A stretch of 64,000 bases of DNA, taken from positions 3,947,365-4,011,364 of the forward strand of contig NZ_MWQN01000001.1 in assembly GCF_002024165.1 (NCBI RefSeq), written 5' to 3'. This document shows positions 33,805-51,527 of the stretch, piece by piece (within the stretch, counting starts at the first letter, position 1; each line of letters opens with the position of its first letter). Below the pieces are notes generated by a model, which did no database searches, had not been told where the DNA came from, and saw only the letters and a list, made by a program, of their open reading frames with translations. A program made the translations under genes and the position numbers. The DNA is from Embleya scabrispora. Lineage in GTDB: Bacteria; Actinomycetota; Actinomycetes; Streptomycetales; Streptomycetaceae.

Positions 33805-33877
33805 GGGCCGCCGCCACGGAACCGGCCACCCGTACGCCTTCGCGACCGAGTCGCCGCCATCCGCCGCCGAAGGCGAG

Positions 33878-33917
33878 GGTGAAGGTCACCGGCCGGGGTG
33901 GGTCGGTGGCCTTCACC
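33878..33917. repeat. Palindromic element, copy 1
   Basis: GGTGAAGG-T-CACCG pairs with CGGTG-G-CCTTCACC across 33878-33917 in the gap between the rhomboid and D-aminoacylase genes. A stronger version recurs inverted at 44185-44236, again beside the end of a D-aminoacylase sequence. Confidence 0.7.
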
Positions 33918-33941
33918 GTCGATCCCTCTTGTCCCGCAAAG

Positions 33942-34251
33942 GGCCGCCGGGTGTGGGTCAGCGGGCGCCGCGGATCAGGCGGCCGGGGCGGGCGCCGGTG
34001 TCTTGGCCGTTGCGGCGGGTGATCTGGCCGGCGACGATCGTGGCTATGTAGCCCGTGGCCTGCTGGAGCATGCGGCCGCCGCCGGCGGGGAGGTCGTGGA
34101 CCATGCGGGGGCGGTGCAGGGTGAGGGTGTCCGGGTCGATCACGTTCAGGTCGGCGCGTTTGCCCTCGGCGATCACGCCCCGGTCGGTCAGGCCGTACAG
34201 CGCGGCGGTGTCCATCGTCTGCTTGCGGACGAGGAACTCCAGCGGCAGCCG
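33942..34251. repeat. Inverted duplication, copy 1 (intact gene)
   Basis: These 310 bases (the last 98 codons of the D-aminoacylase gene and a few bases beyond) recur in opposite orientation at 43858-44167 with three mismatches within the 294 coding bases and no gap. Weaker similarity runs on to about 33819. Confidence 0.95.
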
Positions 34252-35775
34252 CTCGCCGCGGGTGCGGTCCCTGGCCCAGTGGGTGAGCAGGAACGTGGGC
34301 TGGGACGCGTCGCAGATCATCGAGCAGTGCGCGCCGCCGTCGGCCAGGCCGAACACGCTCGCCGGGTGGGTCAACATCTCCCGGATCGCCTCGTGGTCGC
34401 CGTCGGAGTAGTTGAACATCGGCACCATCAGCGTGGTCCGCGCGTCGTCGGCCAGTTGCAGGTCGTACAGCGTCGCCAACGGCTCCTCGCCCCGGGCCCG
34501 CGCGATCGCGACCACGGTCCGGTCCGGCAGCGGCTCGTAGTCCGGGACGGGGTCCATCGGGTACATCCGGTCGAGCATGTACTGCATCGCCAGATTGACC
34601 GAGTCACCGGGGACGTTCGGGTCGCTGGGCAGGTCCGCCTCGGCCAGAATCGCCGCCTTGACCTCCGGCCGGGCCAATTCGGCCGCGAACGCCGCGTCGT
34701 CCAACTCGCCCGCCACGCGCCGGTCGTCCAGCGCCCGGAAGGTCGGTCGTTTGCTGAACGCGTTGCGGGTGCCGAACCCGGTCAGCATCCCGAACGGACG
34801 TCCCGCGATCTGCGGATGCAGTTGCGCGCCCGCCTCGTTCGCCGCCTGCGACTCGGCCATCAACTCCCGCCACAACTGCGGCGCCGCGTTCACCTGGAGC
34901 AGCGCGAACGACACCGGCATGCCGATCTCGGCGGCGAGTCGACGCATCCAGGCCACCTCCGAGGCGGGCTTGACGATGTCCTCGCCGGACGAGCCGGTCG
35001 GCGCCAGTTCGAACACGGCCCGCCCGCCCGCGGCCATCGCCCGGCCCAGGCCGAAGAGTTCGTCCTCCGTGGCGAAGGTGCCCGGCACCGGCTCGCCGCC
35101 CATCGCCTTGTGCGCGACGGTGCGCGAGGTGGAAAAGCCCAGCGCGCCGGCCTCGATCGCCTCGGTGACGATCGCCGCCATCGCCGCGATGTCCTCGGGC
35201 GTGGCCGGTTCGTTGCGCGCGCCCCGCTCGCCCATCGCGTACGCCCGCACCGCGCCGTGCGCGACCTGGACGCCGATGTCGGCGGCGAAGGTACGCCGCT
35301 CCAGCACGTCCAGGTATTCGGGGAAGGTCTCCCAACCCCACGTCATGCCCTCGGCCAGCGCGGTGCCGGGGATGTCCTCGACGCCCTCCATCAACCGGAT
35401 CAGCCAGTCCTCGCGACCCGGCCGCACCGGGGCGAAGCCGACCCCGCAGTTCCCGGAGACCACCGTGGTCACCCCGTGCGAGGTGGACGGGTCGAGCACC
35501 TCGTCCCAGGTGGCCTGGCCGTCGTAGTGGGTGTGGATGTCCACGAAGCCCGGCGTGACCAGCCGGCCGGCCGCGTCGATCGTCTCGGCCGCGGCGCCGT
35601 CCAGGGCCGGATCCGGGCCGTCGTGCCGGCGCACCGCGACGATCAGTCCGTCCCGGATCCCGATGTCGCCGGCGAACCGATCCGCGCCGGTGCCGTCGAC
35701 GATCGTGGCGTTGACGATCTTGAGGTCGTAGACGGGGGTCCCGACGTCGTGCACAGGAGTTTCGAGGTCGTTCAC
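33958..35775 (-). CDS. N-acyl-D-amino-acid deacylase-type amidohydrolase
   Basis: A 605-residue zinc amidohydrolase. The metal motif DIHTHYDGQATWDEVLDPS (about 78-96) and GVTTVVSGNCGVGFAP match D-aminoacylase/dihydroorotase-like enzymes, as do GALGFSTSRTV, VSFALLQVN and GGAHCSMICDASQPTF with the catalytic Asp region. The end (KRADLNVIDPDTL) is the amidohydrolase beta-domain. It likely splits N-acyl-D-amino acids or a related amide; the substrate is unproven. An IclR regulator is divergent with a repeated operator between them. The last third of the gene exists again as an inverted fragment at 43858-44167. Confidence 0.85.
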   Translation of the reverse strand: MNDLETPVHDVGTPVYDLKIVNATIVDGTGADRFAGDIGIRDGLIVAVRRHDGPDPALDGAAAETIDAAGRLVTPGFVDIHTHYDGQATWDEVLDPSTSHGVTTVVSGNCGVGFAPVRPGREDWLIRLMEGVEDIPGTALAEGMTWGWETFPEYLDVLERRTFAADIGVQVAHGAVRAYAMGERGARNEPATPEDIAAMAAIVTEAIEAGALGFSTSRTVAHKAMGGEPVPGTFATEDELFGLGRAMAAGGRAVFELAPTGSSGEDIVKPASEVAWMRRLAAEIGMPVSFALLQVNAAPQLWRELMAESQAANEAGAQLHPQIAGRPFGMLTGFGTRNAFSKRPTFRALDDRRVAGELDDAAFAAELARPEVKAAILAEADLPSDPNVPGDSVNLAMQYMLDRMYPMDPVPDYEPLPDRTVVAIARARGEEPLATLYDLQLADDARTTLMVPMFNYSDGDHEAIREMLTHPASVFGLADGGAHCSMICDASQPTFLLTHWARDRTRGERLPLEFLVRKQTMDTAALYGLTDRGVIAEGKRADLNVIDPDTLTLHRPRMVHDLPAGGGRMLQQATGYIATIVAGQITRRNGQDTGARPGRLIRGAR

Positions 35776-43805: not shown

Positions 43806-44151
43806 CTCACGGCCGAGTTGGCCCGGCCCAAGGTCGAGGCGGCGATCCCGGCCGAGACGGCTGCCGCTGGAGTTCCTCGTCCGCAAGCAGACGATGGACA
43901 CCGCCGCGCTGTACGGCCTGACCGACCGGGGCGTGATCGCCGAGGGCAAACGCGCCGACCTGAACGTGATCGACCCGGACACCCTCACCCTGCACCGCCC
44001 CCGCATGGTCCACGACCTCCCCGCCGGCGGCGGCCGCATGCTCCAGCAGGCCACGGGCTACCTGGCCACGATCGTCGCCGGCCAGATCACCCGCCGCAAC
44101 GGCCAAGACACCGGCGCCCGCCCCGGCCGCCTGATCCGCAGCGCCCGCTGA
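43806..44151 (+). pseudogene. Fragment of a D-aminoacylase gene, inverted copy
   Basis: Two pieces of an amidohydrolase. Bases about 43811-43858 encode TAELARPKVEAAIPAE, matching AAELARPEVKAAILAE of the intact gene at 33958-35775; then about 130 codons are missing and, in another frame, 43858-44151 encode the last 97 residues (LPLEFLVRKQTMDTAALYG to the end). The second piece is 99% identical to the intact gene, in reverse orientation; the first is clearly more diverged. No start or metal site remains, so it is dead. Confidence 0.9.
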
Positions 44152-44167
44152 CCCACACCCGGCGGGC
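43858..44167. repeat. Inverted duplication, copy 2 (fragment)
   Basis: Aligns without gaps to 34251-33942; only three mismatches occur between 43858 and 44151 (at the Ile/Leu and Gly/Ser codons). Weaker similarity continues to about 44290. The pair of copies flanks 9.6 kb. Confidence 0.95.
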
Positions 44168-44184
44168 TCGTTATGGGGCAAGGG

Positions 44185-44236
44185 GACGATGGTGAAGGTC
44201 ACCGGCCCATGTCGGCCGATGACCTTCACCATCGTC
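44185..44236. repeat. Palindromic element, copy 2 (strong hairpin)
   Basis: Perfect 17-bp arms (44185-44201 with 44220-44236) continue, after one mismatch, into a further CGGCC/GGCCG pairing. It corresponds to the imperfect element at 33878-33917 and may act as a terminator. Confidence 0.85.
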
Positions 44237-44289
44237 GTTCAGCGGCGGATGGCGGTTACTCGGTCGCGAAGGCGTACGTCGGTGATGCT

Positions 44290-45415: not shown

Positions 45416-45560
45416 GACGACATCGACGCCGCGCTGACGACCTGGAACGATTTCCTGGTCACCGCCGAGGGCATCCGGTCGATCAAGGTTACCGAGGCCG
45501 TCGCGAAAATGCGGGCTCGCCTGCAGCGGCTCGAGCACGTGCCCGCCGCTACTCCGTGCC
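45416..45560 (+). pseudogene. Remnant of a TPR-type regulator C-terminus
   Basis: In the frame ending DIDAALTTWNDFLVTAEGIR and SIKVTEAVAKMRARLQRL the sequence resembles the last helices of streptomycete helix-turn-helix/TPR regulators. No start or preceding domain is found; it abuts the diiron gene on the other strand. The stretch 45244-45415 shows nothing else recognisable. Confidence 0.4.
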
Positions 45561-46652
45561 CAGTTCCATTGCCGCGTCGATCTCTGCCTTGCGGGTGGCG
45601 AGTTCGGTGGCGGCTCGGGCTTTGTCGTATTGGTCGGCGATTTCCTCGTCCTGGCGCATCAGGGCCAGGAGGTCGGACTTGGCGTGGTCAAGGACGCCCA
45701 TGGACTCGTAGGCGGAGCGGACGCCGTCGCCCCACAGGCCGATGTCGCGGACCACCGGCACGATGCGGCTGAACAGGTGGGAGCGGTAGAGGTGGAACAT
45801 CTCCGACGACTCGACGCACTCCATGCACTCGTCGACCGGCATGTCCAGCGTCTCGAACACCTCGCGGCCGGTGAAGCGGTCGCGCATCAGCAGGCTGCCC
45901 TCGATCACGAACTCCTCGCGCTCGGCCCGCTCCCGGTCGGTCAGTTCGCGGTAGTAGTCCTTGAGCGCGAGGCGGCCGAACGCCACGTGTCGGGCCTCGT
46001 CCTGCATCACGTAGGCGAGGAGGTGCTTGACCAGCGGCGCGGTGGCCAGGTCCCGGTACAGGCCGAAGGCCGCGAGCGCGAGGCCCTCGATCAGTACCTG
46101 CATGCCGAGGTAGGGCAGGTCCCAGCGGCTGTCCTCCAGCGACTCGGCCAGCAGCTTGGCCAGGTCCTGGTTGACCGGGTAGTACATGCCGATCTTCTCG
46201 TGCACGAAGCGGCCGAACAGCTCCACGTGCCGCGCCTCGTCCATGGTCTGCGTCGCGGCGTAGAACTTGGAGTCCATGTCCGGCACCGACTGCACGATCC
46301 GGGCGGAGACGGTCAGCGCGCCCTGCTCTCCGTGCAGGAACTGGCTGAACAGCCAGGAGCCCTGGTGGCGGTCCACCTCGTCGCGGTCGCGCTGCGACAT
46401 CCGGCCCCACAGGTCGGAGCCGTGCAGCGGGTTGAACTCGTCGGGCAGGCCGGCCACGTTGATCGGGTCGATCTCCAGGTCCCAGTCGATCCGGTCCCGG
46501 GCGTCCCACTGCTTGTCCTTGCCCTTTTGGTACAGCGCGAGCAGCCGCTCCCGACCTCCGTCGTATTCCCAGGAGAAGCGGGCGGACCCGGCCATCGGCA
46601 CGTTCCAGGTGTCGGCGGACACCGGGGTGGAGTAGAGCGGGAACGACGTCAC
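45549..46652 (-). CDS. Ferritin-like diiron oxidase
   Basis: A 367-residue helical protein with a full diiron ligand set in two pairs: Glu109 (FLHGEQGAL), Glu139 and His142 (MDEARHVELF), Glu189 (LIEGLALAAF), Glu219 and His222 (QDEARHVAFG). This E/ExxH/E/ExxH pattern is that of ribonucleotide-reductase-like and multicomponent-monooxygenase-like oxidases. It is large for a ferritin, so an O2-activating oxygenase or desaturase acting on a small molecule is more likely; the substrate is unknown. It is last in a six-gene operon, 49 bp after the acyl-CoA-dehydrogenase-like gene. Confidence 0.82.
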   Translation of the reverse strand: MTSFPLYSTPVSADTWNVPMAGSARFSWEYDGGRERLLALYQKGKDKQWDARDRIDWDLEIDPINVAGLPDEFNPLHGSDLWGRMSQRDRDEVDRHQGSWLFSQFLHGEQGALTVSARIVQSVPDMDSKFYAATQTMDEARHVELFGRFVHEKIGMYYPVNQDLAKLLAESLEDSRWDLPYLGMQVLIEGLALAAFGLYRDLATAPLVKHLLAYVMQDEARHVAFGRLALKDYYRELTDRERAEREEFVIEGSLLMRDRFTGREVFETLDMPVDECMECVESSEMFHLYRSHLFSRIVPVVRDIGLWGDGVRSAYESMGVLDHAKSDLLALMRQDEEIADQYDKARAATELATRKAEIDAAMELGTE

Positions 46653-46701
46653 GACAGTCCCTTCGTGGTCGGATCGGTGGTCGGATCGGTCGGGTCCACG
46701 G

Positions 46702-47967
46702 TCAGATCAACCCCTCCGCCGCCAGGGGGTTCCTGGTCAGGGCCCGTTCGACGCCCAGCCACATCGCGCCCGCCATCTCCAGAATCTTGGGCTGGCCCAT
46801 CAGGTGCTGACTGATCGTGGTGAGGTCGCGCAGGTGGCGCTCGATCGGGCAACCACGGTAGATCGAGGCGCTGCCGACCGCGTCGGACAACACGCCGGCG
46901 GCGTCGCGGCAGGTCCGGATGGTGTGCATGTAGCCGCCGACCAGGGCCGCGCGCAGCCGCAACGACGGTTCGGCGCCCTGCTCCAGCGCCGACCACAACT
47001 CGCCCAGCACGTCGTACAGATGGCTGCGCGCCGCGCCGACCATCGCGTGCGCCTGGGCGACGCCGGTCCGGACCCGGGGGTCCTCCCGGGCCGGGCGCAT
47101 CTCGGGCACCGCGATCTTGTCCGCCAGCAGGTCCTCGGCCGCTTCCAGCGCCGCCCGGGCGATGCCGAGCGGCACGCCGGGGAGGTTGGCGAAGAACATG
47201 CCCGGCCAGGCGTACAGGACCCCCTCGCGGCGGCGTTCGCGCAGGTCGCGGAAGCGGAAGGTCTGCTCGGCCGGGACGAATACGTCGTCGATCCGGTAGT
47301 CGTGGCTGCCGCTGCCCGCCAGGCCGGTGGTGTACCAGGTGTCCAGGATCTCGAACCGCTCGGCGCGCAGGAGGGCGACCCGGGTCTCGGGCCGGCCGTC
47401 GTCGGTGTGCGCGGGGGCGCCGTCCTCGTACACGATCGCGCCGCCGATGATCACGTCGGCGTGGGTGCAGCCGCTGCCGAACTGCCAGCGGCCGGTCAGG
47501 CGATAGCCGCCCTCGACGCGGTGGAGCCGACCCGCCGGCACGATCCAGCCCGCGGTGACCGCATCCAGGTCGGGGTAGAGCTTGCGGCCCACGGCGTCGT
47601 CCAGCGCGGAGCTGTAGTAGCCGCCGTCCGAGCCGATCATGGCGCACCACCCGGCCGCCCCGTCGGCCGCGGACAACTCCTCCACGATCCGGGTCTGGGT
47701 ACGGATGTCCACCTCGGGCCCGCCCCACGCCCGGGGCATCGGCATGCGGAACACCCCGGTCGAGCGCAGCGCGTCGACGGCCCGGGGGGTCAGCCGGCGA
47801 CCCCGCTCGTTCGCGTCGGCCTCCTCGCGCAGCACCGGGGCCACGGCCCGGGCGTTGGCCAGGATCGCGGCACCGTCGACGGGCCTGCCGCAGACGGGCC
47901 TGCCGCCACCGGGCCTGCCGTCGACGGAGCCGCCGTCGACGCCGGTCGGGTCAATCGTGCGGGACAT
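46702..47967 (-). CDS. Acyl-CoA-dehydrogenase-fold flavin monooxygenase
   Basis: A 421-residue flavoprotein of the HsaA/DszC/IBAH type. LRSTGVFRMPMPRAWGGPEV, LSAADGAAGWCAMIGSDGG, YRLTGRWQFGSGCTHAD and TWYTTGLAGSGSHDYRIDDV are diagnostic of group D two-component monooxygenases, which lack the acyl-CoA-dehydrogenase catalytic Glu and use reduced flavin and O2 to hydroxylate carbon, nitrogen or sulfur. No flavin reductase gene is adjacent. The N-terminus holds VDGRP-like pentapeptide repeats encoded by 15-bp repeats (about 47870-47940). The gene is 15 bp after the O-methyltransferase. Confidence 0.83.
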   Translation of the reverse strand: MSRTIDPTGVDGGSVDGRPGGGRPVCGRPVDGAAILANARAVAPVLREEADANERGRRLTPRAVDALRSTGVFRMPMPRAWGGPEVDIRTQTRIVEELSAADGAAGWCAMIGSDGGYYSSALDDAVGRKLYPDLDAVTAGWIVPAGRLHRVEGGYRLTGRWQFGSGCTHADVIIGGAIVYEDGAPAHTDDGRPETRVALLRAERFEILDTWYTTGLAGSGSHDYRIDDVFVPAEQTFRFRDLRERRREGVLYAWPGMFFANLPGVPLGIARAALEAAEDLLADKIAVPEMRPAREDPRVRTGVAQAHAMVGAARSHLYDVLGELWSALEQGAEPSLRLRAALVGGYMHTIRTCRDAAGVLSDAVGSASIYRGCPIERHLRDLTTISQHLMGQPKILEMAGAMWLGVERALTRNPLAAEGLI

Positions 47968-47982
47968 GATCGATACCCCTTC

Positions 47983-49044
47983 TCAGGCCGGCGTCGCTTC
48001 GATCACCCGGAAGTCGAAGCGGGGGAGTGCGGTGATCCGGGTCGTCGCGAAGCCCGTCGCGTGCAACAGGCGCCGAAACTCCTCCTCGGTACGCTCGCGG
48101 CCGCCGGTGGCGACCAGCATGTGCAGGTCCAGCAGGAGTGCGGCGGCCTCGGACCGGCTGCCGGGGGTGACCGTCTCGGGCAGCGCGCGCTCCAGCAGGA
48201 ACAGCCGGCCCGCCGGGGGGATCACCGCGCGGATGTTGCGCAGGATGGCGCCTGCTTCCTTGTCGTCCCAGTCGTGCAGGATCTGCTTGAGCAGATAGGC
48301 GTCGCAGCCCGAGGGCACCGCGGCGAAGAAGTCCCCGCTCACCACCCGCGCCCGGGCCGCCACCCCGGCGGCGGCGAGTGTGTCGGCGGTGGCGGCCAGA
48401 CCGGTGGGCACGTCGAACACCACACCCTCGACCTCGGGATGGGCCCGCAACACGTGCGCGAGGAGGGTGCCGTCGCCGCCGCCGAGGTCGACCACGGTAC
48501 GAAACCGCCCCAGGTCGGCGGCGGCGAGCGCCTCGGGCGCCACGTCGCGGGTGTGCTCGGCCATGGCCAGGTTGAACGTCTCGGCGGCGTCGGGATGGGC
48601 CGCGTAGTACTCGGTCCACCCCATGCCGTGGGCCAGCTCCCACGGCGGCTCGCCGGTACGCACCCCCGCGACCAACTCGCCCCAGCTCCGCCAGACTTCG
48701 GGCCCGCACATCATCCGCATCAAGCCGCGGATCGAGTCCGGCGCGTCGGTGCGCAGCGGTTGTCCCAGCTCGGCCAGCTCGAAGCGGTCCGCGCCGACCG
48801 GGGTCAGCACCCCCATCCCGGCCAAGGCCAGCAACAGGCGGTGCAGGGACGGCCCGTGCGCACCGATCCGTTCGGCCAACTCGGCGCTGCTCCGCGGCCC
48901 TCCGGCGAGCAGGTCGGGGATGCCCAACTCGGCCGCCGCGTGGACCGCCTTGCCGGCCAGCACCTGCACGATCATCGCGGAGAGCCGGGCCGAGGGCGGC
49001 GGTTTTCGCCCGTCCCCGCCCACGGCGTCAGCCGCGGAGCGCAT
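47983..49044 (-). CDS. SAM-dependent O-methyltransferase
   Basis: A 353-residue member of the Methyltransf_2 family used in natural-product synthesis. A dimerisation winged-helix (about 20-95, VLAGKAVHAAAELGIPDLLA and LHRLLLALAGMGVLT) is followed by the SAM domain with VVDLGGGDGTLLAHVLRAHP (about 187-206), GDFFAAVPSGCDAYLLKQIL and the catalytic HDWDD (His about 261). It likely methylates a hydroxyl or N-hydroxyl on a small molecule. Its ATG lies inside the end of the FeeM-like gene (17-bp overlap), indicating strong coupling. Confidence 0.87.
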   Translation of the reverse strand: MRSAADAVGGDGRKPPPSARLSAMIVQVLAGKAVHAAAELGIPDLLAGGPRSSAELAERIGAHGPSLHRLLLALAGMGVLTPVGADRFELAELGQPLRTDAPDSIRGLMRMMCGPEVWRSWGELVAGVRTGEPPWELAHGMGWTEYYAAHPDAAETFNLAMAEHTRDVAPEALAAADLGRFRTVVDLGGGDGTLLAHVLRAHPEVEGVVFDVPTGLAATADTLAAAGVAARARVVSGDFFAAVPSGCDAYLLKQILHDWDDKEAGAILRNIRAVIPPAGRLFLLERALPETVTPGSRSEAAALLLDLHMLVATGGRERTEEEFRRLLHATGFATTRITALPRFDFRVIEATPA

Positions 49045-49756
49045 CGGTCGGACACAACGTCGATTCGGCCACGTCGGCGGCGATTTGCTTCATGGTGACC
49101 TTTCGATGGAAATAGTGGTAGCTCCGGGAGACCGCGTAATCGACGTGTTCTTTCCGGTCGGTCATGAAGTAGGTCACGTAGTCGCAGATGGCCTCGTCGC
49201 CCAGAAGATGCAGGGGCGCGTGACGCACCGGAATCGTCCCGAAGTCCACGAACATGGGCAGGATCTCGTGCCGAATCAGCCCGGCGACGTAGTCGAAGCC
49301 CTTGGCGTGCGAGAGCAGCGCACAGTTGCGCATGATGATGCCGAGCAGGAGGTCGCCCTTGAAGGAATGTTCGATCGCGACATTGTTGACCTCGATGATC
49401 CGCCGGCCTGCGGCTCCCGGTATCACCTCGTGATAGATCGAATCGGGCGCGGCCGGGGTCAACCTGAAGATGGCCGCCATTCGGCCGTCGAAGGTGACCT
49501 TGTAACAACTCGACGCCACTCCGGGGAGGAACTTCTCGCGATAGATGCCGAGCGGCCTGAGCGCTTTCTCCAGGAAGTCGCGGTATTCTTCGCGTTCCTG
49601 GGTCTCGGTGATCATGCACGTCTGGTACTTGCGCACCTCGGCCAGGACGGATTCGTCCTTCGGCGCGGCCACGAACGCCACCGGTGAGGTCGCCATCGCG
49701 TGGTCGGTCGGAATACCGTCGTCCTCGGGCCGCAGCTCTTCCCGTACGCTCCTCAT
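49028..49756 (-). CDS. FeeM-like N-acyltransferase
   Basis: A 242-residue protein with a GNAT-like core related to N-acyl amino acid synthases and autoinducer synthases. MAAIFRLTPAAPDSIYHEVI, GRRIIEVNNVAIEHSFKGD, LLLGIIMRNCALLSHAKGFD and FVDFGTIPVRHAPLHLL define the fold; enzymes of this group take acyl chains from acyl-ACP and join them to an amine. An amine substrate is inferred, not shown. The gene is less GC-rich than its surroundings, consistent with transfer. It lies 18 bp after the heme-oxygenase-like gene and overlaps the O-methyltransferase. Confidence 0.65.
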   Translation of the reverse strand: MRSVREELRPEDDGIPTDHAMATSPVAFVAAPKDESVLAEVRKYQTCMITETQEREEYRDFLEKALRPLGIYREKFLPGVASSCYKVTFDGRMAAIFRLTPAAPDSIYHEVIPGAAGRRIIEVNNVAIEHSFKGDLLLGIIMRNCALLSHAKGFDYVAGLIRHEILPMFVDFGTIPVRHAPLHLLGDEAICDYVTYFMTDRKEHVDYAVSRSYHYFHRKVTMKQIAADVAESTLCPTDALRG

Positions 49757-49774
49757 CCCGTCGGATCCTCGACT

Positions 49775-50443
49775 CTAGGACGGGATGGGAGTGGTCAGCA
49801 CATCGTCGAACATCCGACTGTAGTAATGGATCGTCATCCTCCTGCCCTGGATGACGTCGGCCATGTCGGATTCCTTCACCAACAACTCGTTGACGGCGCG
49901 CTTCACGTCCTCGATGTGCTTGGCGTCGAACCCGCCGTGGCTCTTGATGAATGTCACCTGGTTGCGTTCGAGGCCGTACTGGTCCCGGAGCACCTGCGCC
50001 ATGACCTTGCCCAGTTCCGCGCCGAGGCCCTCGGTCAGACTGGCCACGCCGAGGATGCCCACGGGGTTGCCGTAGGTGGCCATGTAGTAGTTCTGCGAGA
50101 CCAGTCCCCAGGACCCGGGCTTCGGCGGCACGGCGAGCACCCGTGCCACGTCCTCACCCAGGTTCCGCAGGTCGTTCATACAGAATTGGTCGTGATTGTT
50201 CTCTTCCTGGACCTGCTCGAAGAACCAGTCGCGCAGACCCCGGTAGTCGTCGCCGAGCCGCGCGCCGGCCAGCGACAACATCCGCGAGGTGTGTCGCACC
50301 ATGTGGTACGTCTCGCGCAGGTAGCTCACGTAATGCTCGCGTTTCATCGCGCCCCCGAGTACGAGCTCGATCAGCCCGTTCTTTTCGATCGAGGCCTTGT
50401 AGTCCTCTTCCGTCGCGGCGAGCAGGTCGTCGAAGTTGCTCAT
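49775..50443 (-). CDS. Heme-oxygenase-like diiron enzyme (PqqC/TenA fold)
   Basis: A 222-residue helical protein annotated elsewhere as iron-containing redox enzymes. Candidate iron ligands match heme-oxygenase-like diiron oxidases such as UndA: Glu81 and His84 (QEENNHDQFC), Glu138 (SLTEGLGAELG) and His169, Asp173, His176 (HGGFDAKHIED). Such enzymes perform N-oxygenation, oxidative decarboxylation or C-C cleavage. TTG-like alternatives are unlikely; ATG 50443 is clear. It precedes the FeeM-like gene by 18 bp and is separated from the thioesterase gene by the purine-rich repeat tract. Confidence 0.78.
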   Translation of the reverse strand: MSNFDDLLAATEEDYKASIEKNGLIELVLGGAMKREHYVSYLRETYHMVRHTSRMLSLAGARLGDDYRGLRDWFFEQVQEENNHDQFCMNDLRNLGEDVARVLAVPPKPGSWGLVSQNYYMATYGNPVGILGVASLTEGLGAELGKVMAQVLRDQYGLERNQVTFIKSHGGFDAKHIEDVKRAVNELLVKESDMADVIQGRRMTIHYYSRMFDDVLTTPIPS

Positions 50444-50533
50444 GATCGGTGCTCCATTCGTTCCGGCGGGCTGACGGACGGTGGTGGCGACAATCCGGCC
50501 GAGGCGGGGTTCGACCGCGGTGCGAGAGCGATG

Positions 50534-50632
50534 ACGAAAAGCGGAACCGGGAGCGGGAACCGAGAGCGGAAACGGAAACGGGAAAGGAAGCGGGAACGGG
50601 AAAGGAAGCGGGAAAGGAGCGGAAGCGAGAGC
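50534..50632. repeat. Purine-rich repeat tract inside the diiron operon
   Basis: About 100 bp of G/A with a C roughly every six bases (GGGAAC, GGAAAC units). ACGGGAAAGGAAGCGGGA occurs twice in perfect tandem (50578-50595 and 50596-50613). It fills the gap between the thioesterase and heme-oxygenase-like genes; transcribed RNA would be C/U-rich. Confidence 0.8.
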
Positions 50633-50671
50633 CGGGTCGGCAGCGCGAACGGCGGCCGGGCGACCCGGCGA

Positions 50672-51118
50672 TCAACGGGTTTTCGGCGGCGGCTTCGGGA
50701 ACGGGAGCAGCCGGTAGGTGCCGATCGCCCGGGCCAGGATCCGGCCCTCGGTATCGGTCAACCTGGCCTCCAGAAAGGCGGAGCTGTTGCCCCGCGACGT
50801 GATGTGCCCCGTACCCAGGAGCCGACCCACGGAAATCGGTTTCACGAAGTCGGTGGACAGGGAGACGGTAACCGGCATGAACTCCGCGTCGGTGAGACCG
50901 ACGATGGCCGAACCCATGCACTCGTCGAGCATGGCGACAATGAACCCGCCGTGCACGTTGCCGGCCGGGTTGGTGAACTCGGGCAGGGCGGTGAAGGAAA
51001 GGTGGATCGAATCCGATTTCTTGTCGAGTTCGAGCAGCGTCCAGTCGACGAGAGCGGCCACCTGCGGCAGATCCCCCAGGCGGTCGAAAACCGTCTCTTC
51101 GACGTTCGTATTCGGCAC
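50672..51118 (-). CDS. PaaI-family hotdog thioesterase
   Basis: A 148-residue hotdog-fold acyl-CoA or acyl-ACP thioesterase. The central helix NPAGNVHGGFIVAMLDECMG (about 52-71) with HGG and the acidic Asp is the PaaI signature, and strands VTVSLSTDFVKPISVGRLLG and GRILARAIGTYRLLP complete the fold. First gene of the minus-strand operon; it may release or proofread the acyl group handled by the FeeM-like enzyme. The 409 bp upstream (51119-51527) hold its promoter region and the lipoprotein terminator, and no gene that I can see. Confidence 0.85.
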   Translation of the reverse strand: MPNTNVEETVFDRLGDLPQVAALVDWTLLELDKKSDSIHLSFTALPEFTNPAGNVHGGFIVAMLDECMGSAIVGLTDAEFMPVTVSLSTDFVKPISVGRLLGTGHITSRGNSSAFLEARLTDTEGRILARAIGTYRLLPFPKPPPKTR

Positions 51119-51448
51119 CGGCGATTCTTCTTTCCTCGATTTTGCCGGACATTTCGCGGCTCGACTCGAGCGGCTCGCCCATGCGTCCGACCTCCGAACA
51201 TTCGGCCGCGCTTGTCAGCATGGTGAGGTCGGAGGGCGAATGTCAACCACTCCGACAAGATCATGCGAGAGCGACGGGCGATTAGCACCCGACCGGGTGA
51301 AGGCAAATGGATCGGTGGCCAAGATCGCGAATGGAGATCAAATATCGGCCGCCGGACCAGCGAATCGTGGGCCGTCGATCCGGCCGATTCCCGCGAGTTC
51401 GCGCCCCGCATACGGGCGCCCGCGTACGGCTCCCGACCCCGAACGCGA

Positions 51449-51481
51449 CTCGGCCGCCCCGCGCGATGCGGGACGGCCGAG
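51449..51481 (-). terminator. Terminator after the lipoprotein gene
   Basis: 14-bp stem with one mismatch (51449-51462 with 51468-51481, loop GCGAT), 46 bases past the stop of the minus-strand lipoprotein gene. Confidence 0.7.
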
Positions 51482-51527
51482 GACGTGTGTCCGCGCCGGG
51501 AACGCGCGGGGTCGAACGGGTCGGGGC

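What the first reader, a model, noticed from the sequence alone, without database searches (positions are those of the whole stretch)
45549..51118. Six-gene operon combining two diiron oxidases, an N-acyltransferase and an O-methyltransferase
On one strand, with gaps of 228, 18, -17, 15 and 49 bp, lie a PaaI thioesterase, a heme-oxygenase-like diiron enzyme, a FeeM-like N-acyltransferase, an O-methyltransferase, an HsaA/DszC-type flavin monooxygenase and a six-ligand ferritin-like diiron protein. Established: each fold occurs in natural-product or lipid oxidation chemistry. Inference: they build a small N-acylated, multiply oxidised and O-methylated compound without PKS or NRPS modules. I know no described pathway with this set. 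The FeeM-like and neighbouring genes are less GC-rich than their surroundings, and the operon sits in DNA inserted into the menaquinone locus.
Basis: partly seen in the sequence, partly recalled or inferred. Interest (0 to 1): 0.82.

Follow-up and report, generated by a model that had tools for sequence, protein, structure and literature searches.

The report
N-acyl metabolite gene cassette in actinomycetes
A rare set of four genes kept together in several soil bacteria probably attaches a fatty acid to an amine and then oxidises and methylates the product with an iron enzyme, which would make it an uncharted small-molecule pathway.

Summary
The six genes are real, at the stated coordinates and gaps. 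The window lies in an Embleya genome. The heme-oxygenase-like protein (HDO) has all six diiron ligands.

The conserved unit is four genes (PaaI thioesterase, HDO, FeeM-like, O-methyltransferase), kept together in 7 of 7 genomes found with the FeeM-like gene, in four genera. The flavin monooxygenase is present in 3 of 7. The ferritin-like gene is adjacent in 3 of 7, but its close orthologue occurs in 58 of 60 Actinomadura, 57 of which or so lack the cassette (3 of 60 have it), so it is an accessory.

A divergent cluster pairs a related HDO with a true Pfam FeeM. In 6 of 8 opened proteobacterial loci the HDO follows a 'thermostable hemolysin' whose profile resembles the FeeM-like family. Pfam-FeeM genes otherwise rarely lie beside an HDO.

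Best reading: an N-acyl amine (amino acid) pathway with HDO oxidation and phenol methylation. Product and HDO reaction are inferred. New variant of a known kind.

The parts
50672..51118 (-). core gene 1: PaaI-type hotdog thioesterase, 148 aa
   Evidence: Pfam 4HBT 2.4e-16; TIGR00369 above cut-off; in 7 of 7 cassette genomes
49775..50443 (-). core gene 2: heme-oxygenase-like diiron oxidase (HDO), 222 aa
   Evidence: Haem_oxygenas_2 4.9e-22; model pLDDT 84.5; Foldseek 3dde, CADD, TenA, UndA; E81, H84, E138, H169, D173, H176 invariant in 11 HDOs
49028..49756 (-). core gene 3: FeeM-like GNAT-fold acyltransferase, 242 aa
   Evidence: no family hit; Foldseek ranks 1-6 are FeeM 2g0b, best E 3.4e-6; found in 6 loci of a species-level genome scan
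47983..49044 (-). core gene 4: O-methyltransferase, 353 aa
   Evidence: Methyltransf_2 3.2e-46; nearest PDB sequences CalO6, 6c5b, AlpH, MmcR, DtpM; in 7 of 7 cassette genomes, though the Actinomadura KC06 ORF is short (277 aa)
46702..47967 (-). accessory: acyl-CoA-dehydrogenase-fold flavin monooxygenase, 421 aa
   Evidence: Acyl-CoA_dh_2 5.9e-21; nearest PDB Rv3094c, then HsaA-type hydroxylases; beside the cassette in 3 of 7 genomes
45549..46652 (-). accessory: ferritin-like diiron protein of the AurF superfamily, 367 aa
   Evidence: AurF 1.8e-16; E109, E139, H142, E189, E219, H222 invariant in 8 homologues; beside the cassette in 3 of 7 genomes
51119..51527 (-). 409-bp intergenic stretch upstream of the first gene, where an operon promoter would lie (inferred)
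   Evidence: gap between PaaI and the upstream same-strand gene; no sigma-70 consensus found

Best explanation
A rare biosynthetic cassette, probably acquired horizontally, that makes a small N-acylated metabolite. Step 1 (inferred from fold): the FeeM-like enzyme moves an acyl group from acyl-ACP or acyl-CoA onto the amino group of an amine, most likely an aromatic amino acid such as tyrosine. Step 2 (diiron ligands shown, reaction inferred): the HDO binds the carboxylate or amine of that compound at its diiron site and oxidises it; my first choice is desaturation or oxidative decarboxylation to a dehydroamino acid or enamide, as for UndA or MboA. Step 3 (inferred from family): the O-methyltransferase caps a phenol. 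The PaaI-type thioesterase edits or releases acyl thioesters. Embleya and Actinoallomurus add a flavin monooxygenase that would hydroxylate an aromatic ring. Embleya and Streptomyces WAC05374 also carry a ferritin-like diiron protein next to the cassette, role unknown. None of the six ORFs is a PKS, NRPS or carrier protein.
For: Core four kept in order and on one strand in 7 of 7 genomes in Embleya, Actinoallomurus, Streptomyces and Actinomadura. FeeM at Foldseek ranks 1-6. Complete 3H/3C HDO site with E-x2-H spacing and a following Asp, as reported for MboA. OMT nearest to natural-product phenol-type methyltransferases and flavin enzyme nearest to aromatic hydroxylases by sequence (their functions recalled). 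Purifying selection. A divergent cluster in G004 has Pfam FeeM, a ferritin-like protein, an HDO of the same clade (98/93) and a flavin enzyme in a row. Known N-acyl tyrosine pathways likewise pair an N-acyl amino acid synthase with an oxidase, a nitroreductase-type one there (passages).
Against: No biochemical data; the FeeM-like model is of low confidence (pLDDT 54) and PF21926 does not match it. The HDO reaction cannot be read from the ligands: HDOs with the same set differ in reaction (passages and parts of PMC13108848). In 150 relatives only 1 of 22 Pfam-FeeM matches lies beside an HDO that I could see (HDO list cut short). The flavin and ferritin-like genes are not part of the conserved unit. 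No promoter found.
Confidence: 0.5

Rival explanations
1. The HDO is an N-oxygenase that hydroxylates an amine, or the free amino acid before acylation; the FeeM-like enzyme then acylates the N-OH or a second amine, and the methyltransferase makes an N-methoxy or O-methyl group: a hydroxamate, oxime or nitro product.
For: Several HDOs are N-oxygenases (PMC13108848). E44 on the preceding helix is invariant in the cassette HDOs and the G004 one and could be an extra carboxylate ligand of the 3H/4C kind (untested).
Against: E44 is Gln in three of the 11 HDOs compared; whether it reaches the metal site was not tested. The ferritin-like protein lacks the AurF-type 3H/4C set.
Confidence: 0.2
2. The cassette makes a diffusible signal: the FeeM-like protein is a LuxI-type synthase and the other enzymes tailor the signal.
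For: Acyl-homoserine-lactone synthases BjaI and EsaI also match the model, below FeeM.
Against: No match to the autoinducer synthase family PF00765. No LuxR-type receptor was looked for or seen next to the cassette; flanks differ between genera.
Confidence: 0.1
3. It is a membrane aminolipid pathway and not a secreted metabolite: N-acyl amino lipids modified by the oxidases.
For: N-acyl amino acids are also membrane lipids (title and abstract start of PMC11631085 in listings). One related HDO locus (Deefgea) carries DUF3419 and a FeeM-like match below cut-off.
Against: Patchy distribution (3 of 60 Actinomadura; 2 of 199 relatives) and a methyltransferase nearest to antibiotic enzymes fit a secondary metabolite better.
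Confidence: 0.12
4. p-Aminobenzoate route: a CADD-like HDO makes p-aminobenzoate and the AurF-like protein oxidises it to a nitro compound.
For: CADD is the second-best fold match of the HDO and a profile hit; Pfam calls the last gene AurF.
Against: The sacrificed Tyr27 of CADD aligns with Ile25, invariant in the cassette HDOs. The AurF-like protein lacks the third His and is absent from the conserved unit.
Confidence: 0.02
5. The six genes are a chance neighbourhood at a rearrangement hotspot and not one pathway.
For: The interval is variable in Embleya and lies next to an inverted repeat; two of the six genes are not in the conserved core.
Against: The four core genes keep order and strand in 7 of 7 genomes of four genera with different flanks.
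Confidence: 0.06

Closest known systems
FeeM-type N-acyl amino acid synthases (fee cluster; PDB 2g0b)
   Same: predicted fold, six best PDB matches
   Different: no PF21926 match; 11-15% identity in the structural alignments; partner genes differ (fee cluster content recalled)
tyz/oxz and stieleriacine-type N-acyl tyrosine pathways (passages of PMC10404671 and PMC12479983)
   Same: acyltransferase for amino acids plus an oxidase acting on the N-acyl amino acid; a methyltransferase in stieleriacines
   Different: oxidase there is a nitroreductase-type flavoprotein with a ThiF-like partner; here a diiron HDO, no ThiF and no nitroreductase among the six genes
HDOs UndA, MboA and CADD
   Same: fold and 3H/3C ligands; E-x2-H spacing and following Asp as in MboA
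   Different: no known HDO is placed by the review passages seen with an N-acyl amino acid synthase; CADD's Tyr27 is missing
   Same: FeeM, ferritin-like protein, HDO and flavin enzyme in a row; HDO in the same clade
   Different: true PF21926 FeeM, AMP ligase and hydrolases; no PaaI or OMT seen in the ten genes scanned
Proteobacterial 'thermostable hemolysin'-AMP ligase-HDO-SDR operons (function unknown to me)
   Same: HDO of the same Pfam family next to a protein whose profile resembles the FeeM-like family (score 25.0, 0 of 60 shuffles reach it)
   Different: AMP ligase (fused to the HDO in 2 of 6) and SDR in place of PaaI and OMT; HDOs fall outside the cassette clade

Membership tests
HDO superfamily | heme-oxygenase-like all-helical fold | tested here: met
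   model pLDDT 84.5; TM 0.75-0.86 to 3dde, CADD and UndA
HDO superfamily | three His and three carboxylate ligands | tested here: met
   E81, H84, E138, H169, D173, H176 invariant in 11 sequences
HDO superfamily | O2-dependent oxidation by a dimetal site | not testable with these tools
   needs protein
CADD-type p-aminobenzoate synthase | sacrificed tyrosine (Tyr27) | tested here: not met
   Ile25 at that place; Tyr27
FeeM / N-acyl amino acid synthase | GNAT/FeeM fold | tested here: met
   Foldseek ranks 1-6, E 3.4e-6 to 3.8e-5, on a model of pLDDT 54
FeeM / N-acyl amino acid synthase | match to Pfam FeeM (PF21926) | tested here: not met
   no match at E up to 1; no match in the window genome
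FeeM / N-acyl amino acid synthase | acyl transfer to an amino acid | not testable with these tools
   needs enzyme assay
LuxI autoinducer synthase | match to PF00765 | tested here: not met
   no match at E up to 1
AurF-type N-oxygenase | AurF superfamily (PF11583) | tested here: met
   60.6 bits against a cut-off of 29.6
AurF-type N-oxygenase | 3 His / 4 carboxylate ligand set | tested here: not met
   only two His are invariant across 8 homologues; set of AurF from PMC13108848. AurF itself was not aligned
HsaA equivalog (flavin monooxygenase) | NCBIfam HsaA cut-off | tested here: not met
   160.7 bits against 450: same superfamily only
Small-molecule O-methyltransferase | Methyltransf_2 and dimerisation domains | tested here: met
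   157.8 and 45.2 bits, both over cut-off

The most novel reading that the evidence does not exclude
A recurrent, undescribed biosynthetic logic: a LuxI/FeeM-fold acyltransferase builds an N-acyl amine and a dedicated HDO oxidises it. It would appear in this actinomycete cassette, in a divergent actinomycete cluster with a true FeeM, and in proteobacterial operons whose 'thermostable hemolysin' would then be an acyltransferase that makes a lytic N-acyl lipid rather than a pore-forming protein. The HDO here would be the first known to act on N-acyl amino acids.
Probability: 0.25. Interest if true: 0.8.

Novelty: new variant of a known kind. Interest (0 to 1): 0.6.

Why it matters
It gives a compact, four-gene test of a new HDO reaction and of a new acyltransferase family, in a field where about a dozen HDOs have known functions (PMC13108848). 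If the link to the 'thermostable hemolysin' operons holds, a proteobacterial gene family would gain a chemical function in place of a misleading name.

Tried and rejected
Rejected: that the ferritin-like gene co-occurs specifically with the cassette. Searches (73-78% orthologue in 5 of 5 other cassette genomes; at most 66% in the 98 relatives other than the window genome and E. hyalina) made it look specific; the Actinomadura control removed this (58 of 60 genomes with a 75-80% orthologue; 3 of 60 with the FeeM-like gene). Rejected: CADD-like p-aminobenzoate synthesis (Ile25 in place of Tyr27). Rejected: a general FeeM-HDO pairing in actinomycetes (1 of 22 PF21926 matches in 150 relatives, with the HDO list cut short).

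Led nowhere: plasmids and viral contigs searched with the FeeM-like protein; profile search of 296 genomes (the window genome and three matches at E 0.02-0.09); PDB searches with the hemolysin profile and the G004 FeeM; Rfam and tRNA scans; a promoter and terminator scan. Literature: nine searches for a described pathway of this kind and one for strain WAC05374 (one paper, listing only). Profile comparisons that did not help: A1 with the Methylibium protein (18 of 60 shuffles reach the score), A1 with the Deefgea protein (4 of 60, the same as the unrelated HDO control), the hemolysin profile with the G004 FeeM (4 of 60). The first HDO tree held wrong-strand translations for 8 of 13 outgroup rows and was discarded; one search uses 17 correctly read rows.
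Full report
What is there. The window is part of a 10.96-Mb genome. The genome of the same genus with the closest cassette is Embleya hyalina NBRC 13850 (G001 contig 30 and the named contig have the same length), so I call the host Embleya. Families: hotdog thioesterase, Haem_oxygenas_2, Methyltransf_2 O-methyltransferase, acyl-CoA-dehydrogenase-fold flavin monooxygenase (far below the HsaA cut-off) and AurF superfamily. The FeeM-like protein had no hit in Pfam, NCBIfam, PHROGs or by single-sequence PDB search. AlphaFold2 with six sequences gave mean pLDDT 54, best blocks 70-78. Foldseek put six FeeM chains at ranks 1-6, then GNAT and acyl-homoserine-lactone synthases. A profile of the family matched one acetyltransferase in the PDB at E 0.008.

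Conservation. The FeeM-like gene is rare. It was found in 2 of 199 genomes among relatives, the window genome included, in 1 of 396 across the phylum, the window genome itself, and in 3 of 60 Actinomadura. A pattern scan of the species-level genome collection gave 29 pattern stretches, of which 6 encode a relative: E. hyalina, Actinoallomurus soli, Streptomyces sp. WAC05374 and three Actinomadura. Such a scan with one protein finds close relatives only. In all six, PaaI, HDO, FeeM-like and OMT follow in the same order on one strand; in Actinomadura KC06 the OMT ORF is short (277 aa). With the window genome the core is 7 of 7. The flavin monooxygenase is beside it in 3 of 7 (both Embleya, Actinoallomurus). 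The ferritin-like gene is beside it in 3 of 7 (both Embleya; divergent in WAC05374). A second PaaI paralogue lies next to the cassette in WAC05374 and two Actinomadura. dN/dS between the window and E. hyalina is 0.06-0.23 for the six genes, 0.06 and 0.39 for two control genes; among Actinomadura it is 0.12-0.21 for HDO and FeeM-like and about 0.4 for PaaI and OMT.

The ferritin-like gene. All five non-Embleya cassette genomes carry an orthologue at 73-78%, beside the cassette only in WAC05374. No copy above 66% was seen in the other 98 of 100 relatives. This looked like linkage until the control: 58 of 60 Actinomadura have a 75-80% orthologue, though only 3 have the cassette. In three Actinomadura and Actinoallomurus it sits in another neighbourhood with a shared regulator-like gene. 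The two Embleya without the cassette have a 58-59% copy that the two with it lack. The site residues are 4 Glu and 2 His.

The HDO. E81, H84, E138, H169, D173 and H176 are invariant among 11 HDOs, 5 from actinomycetes and 6 from proteobacteria, matching the 3H/3C rule of a 2026 review (PMC13108848; I read its outline, two of six parts and passages). The E-x2-H spacing, and the Asp after the His in the cassette and G004 proteins, are as reported for the alkyne-forming MboA (passages of PMC13185094). The model (pLDDT 84.5) matches 3dde and CADD best, then TenA proteins and UndA. CADD's sacrificed tyrosine is replaced by Ile25.

Parallels. A genome of the same family, G004, has in a row a Pfam FeeM (1.2e-10), a halogenase-like flavin enzyme, a carboxymuconolactone-decarboxylase-type protein, a protein with weak DUF455, AurF and PaaA_PaaC matches below their cut-offs, an HDO at 35% identity and an AMP ligase. 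Its HDO groups with the cassette HDOs (98/93) apart from 17 other actinomycete HDOs (long branches, so with care). Of 29 plasmid records with an HDO relative I opened 8. In 6 of 8 the order is thermostable hemolysin, AMP ligase, HDO, SDR, with ligase and HDO fused in 2; all six hemolysins match PF12261. The other two are Deefgea, where the gene before the HDO matches FeeM at E 0.004, below cut-off, and Methylibium, where it matches nothing and a ferritin-like protein follows two genes after the HDO. The hemolysin profile aligns with the FeeM-like family over 141 columns, score 25.0; 0 of 60 column shuffles reach it (mean 13.9, maximum 19.1). The control against the unrelated HDO profile is reached by 4 of 60. 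hhalign's own probability for the pair is 5.7%, and the hemolysin profile does not recognise the G004 FeeM (4 of 60), so this is a lead, not a proof. Against generality: among 150 relatives, 22 Pfam-FeeM matches in 21 genomes include only the G004 one beside an HDO that I could see; the HDO list was cut short.

Site. The flanks are menaquinone genes: SCO4490-type decarboxylase, MqnP, UbiX family and MqnE. FeeM-like, HDO and PaaI are GC-poor; OMT and the flavin enzyme are not. In the cassette-free Embleya G003, 3.6 kb of other DNA lies between the MqnP gene and the unnamed gene next to UbiX; in G002 the decarboxylase-MqnP segment is inverted. A 432-bp copy (94%) of an amidohydrolase gene end lies inverted at 43847-44278 against 33831-34262, a possible cause of the inversion (inference).

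Mechanism. Shown: gene set, predicted folds, diiron ligands. Inferred: acylation by the FeeM-like enzyme, HDO oxidation of the product, phenol methylation, ring hydroxylation by the flavin enzyme. Known N-acyl tyrosine pathways use nitroreductase-type oxidases with ThiF partners (passages of PMC10404671 and PMC12479983). I found no paper that places an HDO in this role in nine searches of open-licence papers; listings only, apart from the papers named here and PMC10849742 (passages).

Verdict. A real, rare and conserved cassette that I could not find described; a new variant of N-acyl amino acid-type biosynthesis. The six-gene reading should be cut to four core genes plus two accessories.

Noticed in passing
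33831-34262 and 43847-44278: 432-bp inverted repeat (94%) made of an amidohydrolase gene end and a stray copy; it flanks a 9.6-kb segment that is inverted in a cassette-free Embleya genome.
   Followed up: partly
L066-L076 series: L069, L071, L072, L073, L075, L076: Proteobacterial operons of PF12261 'thermostable hemolysin', AMP ligase, HDO and SDR; the hemolysin profile resembles the FeeM-like family. A paper listed (PMC5643525, title only) reports a hemolytic N-acyl glycine from Bacteroidales, so hemolysis could come from a lipid product.
   Followed up: partly
L023 5465-15656 (G004): Separate uncharacterised cluster with Pfam FeeM, halogenase-like flavin enzyme, HDO, AMP ligase, two hydrolases, TauD-type dioxygenase, racemase and DUF6025.
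   Followed up: partly
L030 6255-8386, L031 5395-7469, L032 5940-8046: A P450 gene and a PF04672 methyltransferase gene lie divergently upstream of the cassette in all three Actinomadura loci (88-94% identical; families checked in L030 only); they may belong to the pathway there.
   Followed up: no
45549-46652 and G002, G003: The two Embleya genomes with the cassette lack the 58-59% ferritin-like copy that the two without it have, as if the operon copy had replaced it.
   Followed up: no
50444-50671: The 228-bp gap between PaaI and HDO holds a pyrimidine-rich, repeat-like stretch; the gap is shorter in the other loci (48-180 bp).
   Followed up: no
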